Below the pieces are notes generated by a model, which did not search any database, had not been told where the DNA came from, and was given only the letters and a program-made list of their open reading frames with translations. A stretch of DNA of 64,000 bases, from the NCBI GenBank assembly GCA_017617995.1, contig JAFZVE010000073.1, forward strand, positions 1 to 64,000, in the 5' to 3' direction. This DNA is from Clostridiales bacterium. Lineage in GTDB: Bacteria; Bacillota; Clostridia; Saccharofermentanales; Saccharofermentanaceae. Of the stretch, positions 30,106 through 33,164 are shown in pieces. The translations under genes were made by a program, and so were the position numbers. How positions within the stretch are numbered: the stretch's first letter is position 1; each line of letters starts with the position of its first letter.

Positions 30106-31041
30106 TCAGTTCTTCGGTCCCTGATTCACGATACCGCCGTTATTGAGTTTCTCGTCCTTCCAAGATGATCTCTGTTTCGTAAAGAGTGCATCTGCTGCCG
30201 ACTGTGCTGCACTCGGGGCCGTAGCGGGAGAAGCTTCGCCCTCACCACCAAACTGGCCAGGTGCAAGAACGGGCGCCGAGGCTACACCTTCAACAGGCTG
30301 TGCCGGCTGGAACGGGGGCGGTTCCGGAAGTCTGTCTTCTGTCACTGCACCGACTACTGCTGCAGCAGGAGCTGCCGCGGCCACTGCCATCGGAGCTGCT
30401 GAACCTTCAAATGCCGGAGCTGCAGGAGCCTCAACAGGCGCATCAAATACAGGAGCAGCAGGCGCTTCTGCAACAGGCTCGACCGGCGCTTCTGCAACTG
30501 GTTCTACCGGTGTTTCAAAAGCCGGAGCTACAGGTGCTTCTACCGGTGCCGGATCGATCGAATCAGGCGTTTCAGCGCATACATCGCCCATGATCTGGTA
30601 CTGCTCTTCTACCGGTTCCGGCATAGCACTTGTCGGTGCATCCGGCATACCCGAAAGATCTCCCATTGCTGAGACAGGGGCGGGTTCCATTGTCTGCATA
30701 TCGGGAGCAGCGGGAGCTTCGAAAGCAGGTGCTTCAACCGGTGCAGCCGGTGCCTCAAAAGCAGGTGCTTCAACCGGGGCCTCAGCAACAGGCGCCTCGA
30801 AAGCAGGCGCGACCGGAGCTTCTACAGGAGCCTCGAAAGTTGGAGCTGCAGGCGCTTCTATCGGAGCGTCAAATGCAGGTGCAGCAGGCGCTTCAAAAGC
30901 CGGAGCCTCAACAGGTGCTTCCACAACCGGTGCAGCAGCTTCTACAACTGGAGCGGCAGCCGCATCAGCAAGCTTAAATCCGCAGCTCATGCAGAAAAGA
31001 TCACCTTCACGTACCGGGTTACCACAATTTGGACAGTTCAT
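30106..31041 (-). CDS. Zinc-ribbon protein with long Ala/Pro/Val/Glu low-complexity region
   Basis: 311 residues. The N-terminus is a zinc ribbon with Cys3, Cys6, Cys17 and Cys20 ([20 protein letters not shown]). About 200 residues of degenerate [12 protein letters not shown]-type repeats follow, probably an extended flexible rod. The C-terminus ends in a short charged patch ([15 protein letters not shown]). GGAGG precedes the ATG. Zinc-ribbon plus disordered-tail proteins are common in Clostridia and of unknown role. The repetitive DNA makes indels or assembly errors likely. A similar design is encoded at 61094-62230. Confidence 0.8.
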
Positions 31042-31881: not shown

Positions 31882-32694
31882 TTAAAGAAACATGTCGCTT
31901 ATCATGGCACGCATCTCCTTCATATTCAACGTCGTCCCATCTCCTTCGAAGGTAAGCATCAGATTTTTCCCCGTATAGATTCCATTTCGCCGATAGATAT
32001 CGTTCTTCTCCAGAAACCTTTTCCGATAAACGGGGTCGTCCATCTTCCCGCAATGCTCGTGATATATCTCCCGCCTGTTCTTTTTATCCCAGAGCGTGAA
32101 GTCCGGAACCAGCACCGATCCGTCCGGGAATCTCAATTCCTGTTCGTATCTGTACGGTATCCCCATCTCCAGATATGTATCCGCAAAGAGGACTTCCGAT
32201 TTAGAGCGTACCATATCCCCTTTCTTTGTCGGATAGATCTTCTTTTCTGGAAAGGTCGAGCCCTGGGTATACGGAGCCTGTTCCCATAATCTTTCGCAGA
32301 CCTCATCCGAGACTAGAAGAGGCCGGATCAGTGCTTTTCGCGCATCGCACATATTTGTGAACAGTTTTTCCGGCGACTTACCGCTGATGCAATCAATATA
32401 AGCATTCAGCGAAATCAACTCGCGGGATGCTCGGAAAATGAAGCGTTCAAGATACGTCCTCGACGCCAGGGCTCTTGCCAGGGCCACTTCTTTTCGCGTG
32501 ATGTACTTCCGGCGCCCTGCAGTCTGTTCGGATACAAGATACATGAATATACCTTTTTTTCCATTGACTAACTCCAGATGACCATCGGGCCAATTGCCCG
32601 AATCACGCAAACTGTGCAGATCAGCTTCCGCCTTGGCAATTGTCCTTTCCAGAATGCTTTTTCTCTTCAATAGTGATTCTATAAATGTAAGCAT
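31882..32694 (-). CDS. PD-(D/E)XK nuclease-like protein
   Basis: 270 residues. The C-terminal third resembles the small PD-(D/E)XK nucleases found alone or on helicases: GDMVRSKSEVLFADTYLE (Glu167), VLVPDFTLWD (Asp198) and IYHEHCGKMDDPVY (Glu213). The last corresponds to the usual WEHLGMMD motif. The N-terminal part is helical and basic and may bind nucleic acid. GGGAGG precedes the ATG. It stands alone with no methylase or helicase nearby. Base use looks more A/T-rich than in neighbouring enzyme genes, which may point to transfer. A DNA-processing role is inferred only from motifs. Confidence 0.75.
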   Translation of the reverse strand: MLTFIESLLKRKSILERTIAKAEADLHSLRDSGNWPDGHLELVNGKKGIFMYLVSEQTAGRRKYITRKEVALARALASRTYLERFIFRASRELISLNAYIDCISGKSPEKLFTNMCDARKALIRPLLVSDEVCERLWEQAPYTQGSTFPEKKIYPTKKGDMVRSKSEVLFADTYLEMGIPYRYEQELRFPDGSVLVPDFTLWDKKNRREIYHEHCGKMDDPVYRKRFLEKNDIYRRNGIYTGKNLMLTFEGDGTTLNMKEMRAMISDMFL

Positions 32695-32926
32695 ATGAGC
32701 CTCCCTTTCGGGACGCGCCTGGTCGCTTCAAACTCATATCAAAACACAAACCGGTTTATCCGATCCTAAGCTACACGTGGCAGCAAAACAAAACATATCA
32801 TATGCGTGCGGCAGATCTTCCGCCGCCCCTAGCACGCCACTTTTTGCCTATGATACATCCTTTCCACATCGATATCAAGATGGAAAAGCAATCAGTATTT
32901 TCGCCCGAAACACCTATGTAGTCGAA
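32695..32926. other. Intergenic stretch without recognised gene
   Basis: The 232 bases between the nuclease-like gene and the hairpin array hold no convincing coding frame. A short imperfect stem (TTTCCA / TGGAAA near 32870-32886) is visible but not interpretable. Confidence 0.5.
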
Positions 32927-33128
32927 AGACAAGAGATACCTAGGTTTTCGCTTTGACCTCTTGTCTTCGTAGGAAGAATCAGACAAGAGGTTCCTCTGTT
33001 TTCACCTTGACCTCTTGTCTTTGCTAGAGAAATCAGACAAGAGGTTCCTCTGTTTTCGCTTTGACCTCTTGTCTTCGCCAGAGAAATCAGACAAGAGGTT
33101 CCTCTGTTTTCGCTTTGACCTCTTGTCT
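32927..33128. repeat. Four tandem 54-bp units, each a 40-bp inverted repeat
   Basis: Units start at 32927, 32981, 33035 and 33089, exactly 54 bp apart. Each begins AGACAAGAG and ends CTCTTGTCT; units 2-4 have a perfect 11-bp stem AGACAAGAGGT / ACCTCTTGTCT around an 18-base loop. Units 3 and 4 are identical over 40 bases, and unit 1 is the most diverged. Linkers of 14 bases are similar to each other. The array ends about 30 bases before the -10 of the next gene. Confidence 0.95.
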
Positions 33129-33158
33129 TTGTTTCTATGCCTTCGCCTCGCGATGGTG

Positions 33159-33164
33159 TAAAAT
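33159..33164 (+). promoter_or_regulatory. Candidate -10 of the 225-residue protein gene
   Basis: TAAAAT lies 27 bases before the ATG and just downstream of the hairpin array, with no good -35. Weak support. Confidence 0.35.

What the first reader, a model, noticed from the sequence alone, without database searches (positions are those of the whole stretch)
32927..33128. Exact 54-bp tandem array of four 40-bp hairpins upstream of an unknown gene
Four units spaced exactly 54 bp each carry the inverted repeat AGACAAGAGGT / ACCTCTTGTCT. They are nearly identical, with similar 14-bp linkers, and stop about 30 bases before the -10 region of the 225-residue protein gene. This could be an operator array, a minisatellite of palindromes, or a transcribed structured RNA. 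It fits no known element I can name.
Basis: seen in the sequence. Interest (0 to 1): 0.7.

Follow-up and report, generated by a model that had tools for sequence, protein, structure and literature searches.

The report
Tandem 54-bp terminator-like palindrome array
This is one of at least four similar arrays of repeated DNA hairpins scattered between genes in this gut-type Clostridia genome and two close relatives, usually just after the ends of genes, so it is a dispersed REP-like repeat family (probably backup transcription stop signals and a landing site for mobile DNA), not a private switch for the gene beside it.

Summary
In detail: four 40-bp palindromes (32927-33128) spaced exactly 54 bp, with 7 of 8 arms exact. 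The gene-specific-operator reading fails the finder's own test. The same 54-bp unit forms three more arrays in this genome, next to unrelated genes, and about 18 in two congeneric genomes. Most of the 23 genus genomes lack it.

Arrays usually lie after gene 3' ends or between convergent genes. One strand carries hairpin, GAAAA loop and a T-rich tail, pointing the way the upstream gene is read in 7 of 8 informative loci. I file it as a RAYT-independent, REP-like family of tandemly amplified, terminator-like palindromes. Terminator or insulator function is likely but untested, and weakest for the window array, which lies between divergent genes and has poor T-tails.

Two surprises. (1) The palindrome core is shared by all loci of a genome but differs between genomes (ACAAGAG / TCAAGAG / GCAAGAG), while loops and linkers are only about half identical. 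That suggests inter-locus exchange or a co-evolving trans-acting factor. (2) In one relative an IS110-family element sits in at least two, probably three, arrays, and its predicted bridge-RNA guides match the repeat. New variant of a known kind; interest about 0.5.

The parts
32927..32966 (-). palindrome 1 (one arm with a mismatch, AGACAAGAGAT); unit strand is minus
32981..33020 (-). palindrome 2
33035..33074 (-). palindrome 3
33089..33128 (-). palindrome 4
32914..33129 (-). whole array as four 54-nt units (hairpin, GAAAA loop, T-rich linker on the minus strand)
   Evidence: covariance-model matches at 32914-32967, 32968-33021, 33022-33075, 33076-33129, 38.9 to 57.3 bits
33192..33869 (+). neighbouring 225-aa gene, unknown function; not the specific partner of the array
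33159..33164 (+). TAAAAT, -10-like box of the 225-aa gene, 30 bp after the array
   Evidence: by eye
31882..32694 (-). neighbouring 270-aa gene, divergent from the 225-aa gene; member of a multicopy family of the genus; arrays also lie upstream of its closest relatives in G019 and G015

Best explanation
The feature is one member of a lineage-restricted, dispersed family of tandem palindrome arrays (period 54 bp, inverted arms NCAHGAG and CTCDTGN, 34 bp from CAHGAG start to CTCDTG end). Each unit is built like an intrinsic terminator on one strand: hairpin, A-rich loop, then a T-rich linker. The arrays change size by gain or loss of units near gene 3' ends and are kept similar by turnover within arrays and exchange between loci. 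Their most likely job is to end or insulate transcription (stop read-through and antisense transcription) in a REP/BIME-like way; they also serve as landing sites for an IS110-family element in a relative. In the window the array is an atypical member: it sits between two divergent genes, its T-tails are poor, and it may now only insulate the two promoters or be a relic of an arrangement like that in G015, where a gene ends just before it. Shown: array, dispersal, conserved spacing, location and strand bias, copy-number difference, IS insertions. Inferred: termination or insulation as function.
For: Four arrays in this genome, seven in G015, about eleven loci in G019, beside unrelated genes. 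The palindrome core with its spacing has 24 exact matches in own-genome arrays and only one outside, itself a terminator-like hairpin. Spacing: 34 nt in 116 of 136 units, period 54 in 85 of 108 steps. On the unit strand the 20-nt linker holds more T than A (6.8 against 4.7, p = 0.0015) and more TTTT than AAAA (0.36 against 0.11, p = 0.0045). Arrays often start within 35 bp of a stop codon (L018 33, L089 25, L093 16, L100 7, L102 26 bp), and in L018 and L100 the first hairpin runs straight into T7 or T6. One unit in G017 against six in G015 at the same site with conserved flanks.
Against: No expression data. The window array has no TTTT in its linkers, is not called by the terminator scan and lies between divergent genes. 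At C53 and in L091 an ordinary terminator already precedes the array. Loops of about 18 nt are long for intrinsic terminators. Stem changes show no G-U over A-C excess. Only 7 of 8 informative loci show the strand bias.
Confidence: 0.5

Rival explanations
1. The arms are half-sites of a sequence-specific trans-acting factor (DNA-binding protein or recombinase) that acts on all arrays of a genome; its specificity has shifted between species and the arrays have followed.
For: Base -1/34 of the core is uniform across loci inside a genome and different between genomes: G000 A-T 24 of 25 type-A units in four arrays, G015 left T in 42 of 42 in seven arrays, G019 type A mostly G-C. Between-array identity in one genome is 0.98-1.00 in the core against 0.50-0.63 in the rest for type A. 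At the variable core position T/C and A/G combine independently (Fisher p = 1.0), as expected for two recognised motifs rather than a paired stem.
Against: Units do move between loci (window and C53 linkers 0.78 identical in G000; G019 pfkB and blaI share a block), so part of the uniformity is shared descent. No candidate factor was found. The core CANGAG was required when units were collected.
Confidence: 0.22
2. A selfish or neutral minisatellite: palindromes expand by slippage and spread by recombination, are tolerated only where they do no harm (3' ends, convergent gaps), and have no function.
For: Restricted to a few species of the genus, copy-number difference, 108-bp super-periods, inter-locus exchange.
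Against: Conserved core, arm spacing and loop GAAAA despite diverged flanks; strand bias of tails; Y-type units identical between G000 and G019 over more than 70 bp at blaI.
Confidence: 0.18
3. A structured RNA acting as RNA (3'-UTR stabiliser, sRNA or protein sponge).
For: Stable fold, z = -4.3; sense polarity downstream of genes.
Against: No excess of G-U over A-C changes that would mark one strand as the RNA (core 17 against 11, equal at the most variable position), and T/C against A/G there are independent. No Rfam match.
Confidence: 0.08
4. A gene-specific operator array for the 225-aa gene, as first proposed.
For: The array ends 30 bp before its -10-like box; the G019 orthologue also has an array with the same boundary.
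Against: Same unit at many unrelated loci; homologues in other genus genomes lack a comparable array; G015 has the array beside the 270-aa relative although the 225-aa gene was not found there.
Confidence: 0.02

Closest known systems
REP elements and BIMEs (GTAG/CGTC-tagged palindromes, RAYT-associated; PMC3733652, PMC2817692)
   Same: Extragenic palindromes, near gene ends, clustered in regular arrays, species-specific subfamilies, targets of IS110-type elements (PMC1525189)
   Different: No GTAG/CGTC tag, no Y1/RAYT transposase in this genome, exact 54-bp head-to-tail period, few loci, T-rich tail
Intrinsic (Rho-independent) terminators
   Same: Hairpin followed by a T-rich stretch at gene ends, right after the stop codon at some loci
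   Different: 4-9 tandem copies with a shared core at unrelated genes; long loops; many tails weak
DNA uptake sequences as inverted-repeat terminators with dialects (Neisseriaceae, PMC3630211)
   Same: Genome-specific short core in inverted pairs near gene ends; dialects differ between species
   Different: The core occurs essentially only in arrays here, not scattered in hundreds to thousands of copies
TIGR arrays (PMC12045711) and CRISPR
   Same: Regular tandem arrays; TIGR has a stem-loop variant
   Different: Units nearly identical within an array, no variable spacers, no Nop-domain protein in three genomes

Membership tests
REP/BIME (classical) | Extragenic palindrome present at many loci of the genome, often clustered | tested here: met
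   four arrays in this genome, about 25 arm-matched units; low copy number for a REP family
REP/BIME (classical) | Conserved GTAG or CGTC tag at one end | tested here: not met
   position profile shows no such tag
REP/BIME (classical) | Associated RAYT (Y1_Tnp) transposase | tested here: not met
   no PF01797 match in this 89% complete genome; controls positive; CGTC REPs also lack one (PMC3733652)
REP/BIME (classical) | Target of IS110-type insertion sequences | tested here: met
   in relative G019, junctions in array units and matching predicted guides; not seen in the window genome
Intrinsic terminator | Hairpin followed directly by a T-run | tested here: inconclusive
   met in L018, L100 and others, not in the window array
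Intrinsic terminator | Sense orientation at gene 3' ends | tested here: met
   7 of 8 codirectional loci, about 9 convergent; the window locus itself is divergent
Intrinsic terminator | Stops transcription | not testable with these tools
   needs RNA data
Structured RNA | Covariation with G-U preference on one strand; known family | tested here: not met
   pairs covary at -1/34 but no G-U preference; no Rfam match
TIGR/CRISPR guide array | Variable spacers and an effector gene | tested here: not met
   units nearly identical; no Nop domain; cas genes not searched
DNA uptake sequence | Scattered in high copy through the genome | tested here: not met
   core 8-mer absent from the window outside the array; spaced core almost confined to arrays
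Gene-specific operator | Restricted to the regulated gene or regulon and conserved with it | tested here: not met

The most novel reading that the evidence does not exclude
The arrays are multi-site targets of a still unknown trans-acting recogniser whose specificity drifts between species, so that every array in a genome carries the same 'dialect' of a 7-bp inverted core while the rest of each array drifts freely: a bacterial analogue of satellite and binding-protein co-evolution.
Probability: 0.22. Interest if true: 0.75.

Novelty: new variant of a known kind. Interest (0 to 1): 0.48.

Why it matters
It documents REP-like tandem palindrome arrays without a RAYT or GTAG tag in rumen-type Clostridia, with terminator polarity, copy-number change at a shared site and a genome-specific core. 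It also gives a predicted, naturally programmed IS110 bridge RNA that matches the repeat. If a co-evolving recogniser exists, it would explain how bacterial repeat families keep a shared identity; that is directly testable by pull-down.

Tried and rejected
RNA wobble asymmetry, which looked promising at first, disappeared when counted. RAYT/Y1 transposase: none in the window's genome. Nop/TIGR: none. The 270-aa gene as dedicated partner: rejected, since its family is multicopy in genomes without arrays. DNA-uptake-like signal: rejected. One search used a wrong gap (20 instead of 22) and was repeated. One search failed on a wrong frame. IS110 by PF02371 was not found in G019; the contigs seen stop inside the element, and its C-terminus was identified by tblastn against annotated IS110 transposases. 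Literature searches for a described 54-bp hairpin array in Clostridia found none.

Full report
Observation. The array is exactly as described: four 40-bp palindromes, 54-bp period, 14-bp linkers, 7 of 8 arms exact. It is the strongest tandem repeat in the window, and its minus strand folds far better than shuffles. It lies between two divergent genes: the 225-aa gene (+) and a 270-aa gene (-) that the finder did not mention. Neither has a Pfam or NCBIfam match.

It is a dispersed family. A DNA search of the window's own 2.78-Mb assembly found two further arrays, both with the 54-bp period. A covariance model built from 35 units found four arrays in this genome (C36 = window, C53, C34, C49), seven in G015 and about eleven loci in G019 (counts per locus are mine, after joining contigs split by an insertion sequence). 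Other genus members gave none or one to three units, and a search of 115 family genomes added one further hit. G019 is very probably MAG RGIG7868 from water-buffalo reticulum: its contig C57 has the length of JAFZLF010000053.1 and holds the window orthologue. The first-look filter scored at most 150 candidates per genome, so weak arrays can be missed, and all these genomes are draft assemblies.

Anatomy of the unit. Over 136 units, the distance from the start of CAHGAG to the end of CTCDTG is 34 bp in 116 and 33 in 19; the step is 54 bp in 85 of 108 cases. The consensus on the unit strand is NCAHGAGGTTT-nnn-CGAAAA-nnGnn-AAACCTCDTGN, followed by a linker with a T-rich stretch. Collection of units required most of CANGAG/CTCNTG, so the conservation of those letters is partly built in. 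Positions -1, 34 and 2, the loop GAAAA and the T-rich linker were not required in that step, although they contributed to the covariance model used to find the loci.

Location and polarity. Neighbours are unrelated: TIGR00266/rsmE-like, a zinc-ribbon protein/blaI-like, aconitase, pfkB, GNAT, a histidine kinase, AI-2E transporter and others (rsmE and blaI are named from sequence by eye). Gene calls are from a simple codon score plus Pfam, so the counts are approximate. About nine of 20 independent loci are convergent, and two are divergent (the window with its G019 orthologue, and L099). Of eight loci with both neighbours in one direction, seven have the unit strand in that direction; the exception, L107, is a single unit. 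Linkers are T-rich on the unit strand (p = 0.0015) and TTTT is commoner than AAAA (p = 0.0045), over 28 arrays that are not all independent. Several arrays begin within 35 bp of a stop codon, and at C34 and L100 the first unit then looks like a textbook terminator. At C53 and L091 an ordinary terminator already precedes the array (by eye). The window array has no TTTT linker and is not called by the scanner.

Evolution. At one site G017 has one unit and G015 six, with conserved flanks, so arrays expand or contract in place. The window array starts at the same position in G019, but with different arms (AGACAAGAGG against AGTCGTGAGG). G015 has an array upstream of the closest relative of the 270-aa gene, there between codirectional genes. 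At blaI, two Y-type units are identical in G000 and G019 over more than 70 bp, with two extra units in G019, and the last A-type unit of G000 is a hybrid whose right arm (CTCTTGC) is the G019 type. The window and C53 arrays share linkers (0.78) that the C53 orthologue in G019 lacks (0.17), so units move between loci.

A genome-specific core. In type-A units position -1/34 is A-T at all four loci of this genome (24 of 25 units), T on the left at all seven loci of G015, and mostly G-C in G019. Core identity between arrays of one genome is 0.98-1.00 for type A, against 0.50-0.63 for the rest of the unit. Two explanations remain: exchange between loci followed by drift of the unconstrained parts, or a trans-acting factor that reads the core. 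In the Y class, T/C on the left and A/G on the right combine independently (p = 1.0), which speaks against selection for RNA pairing at that position and fits two separately recognised motifs.

An IS110 element follows the repeat. In G019, three right junctions (L095, L096, L103) and three left junctions (L032, L097, L102) of one element abut array units. Synteny with G000 joins L103 with L032 (rsmE) and L097 with L096 (blaI); L102 with L095 is by elimination. The C-terminal 36 residues match annotated IS110 transposases at up to 69%. The target core reads as CT, the core used for IS621 guides in PMC11208160. The left non-coding end contains TGCCGACCT and, after a small hairpin, TTGCAAGAGG within a closed outer stem (-15.6 kcal/mol). 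These equal the expected left and right target guides for GTGCCGACCT|CTTGCA, following the guide rules in PMC11208160. L097 and L102 match the left guide fully, L032 only in part. This is a prediction. IS110-type elements landing in REPs are known (PMC1525189, PMC11208160), which makes the arrays functionally REP-like.

Verdict. The best reading is a REP-like, RAYT-independent family of tandem terminator-like palindromes; it is not a classical REP, because the tag and the transposase were tested and not met. Terminator or insulator function is probable for the family, less so for the window array itself. The open and interesting part is why the core is uniform within, and different between, genomes.

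Noticed in passing
L095:1-141, L096:1-141, L103:1-248, L032:7637-7836, L097:1-133, L102:1-133 (G019): Ends of an IS110-family element inserted in hairpin arms; its non-coding end carries predicted bridge-RNA target guides (TGCCGACCT, TTGCAAGAGG) matching the array unit. The complete element was not seen in the assembly.
   Followed up: partly
window 31882-32694 (minus) and about 200 bp upstream: 270-aa protein family with 1-8 matches per genome in 22 of 23 genus genomes, possibly PD-(D/E)XK nuclease-like by eye, no Pfam or NCBIfam match; its leader region is strongly conserved between G000 and G019.
   Followed up: partly
L018:3990-4100 and L096:165-270 (blaI locus): Two Y-type units are identical over more than 70 non-coding bp between two species whose 225-aa orthologues are 86% identical.
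   Followed up: partly
L033:3750-4148: 108-bp super-period (two alternating unit types), suggesting block duplication.
   Followed up: no
window 30106-31041 (minus): Zinc-ribbon protein with a long Ala/Pro/Glu-rich repeat tail ([11 protein letters not shown]...), giving several 21-36 bp tandem repeats.
   Followed up: no
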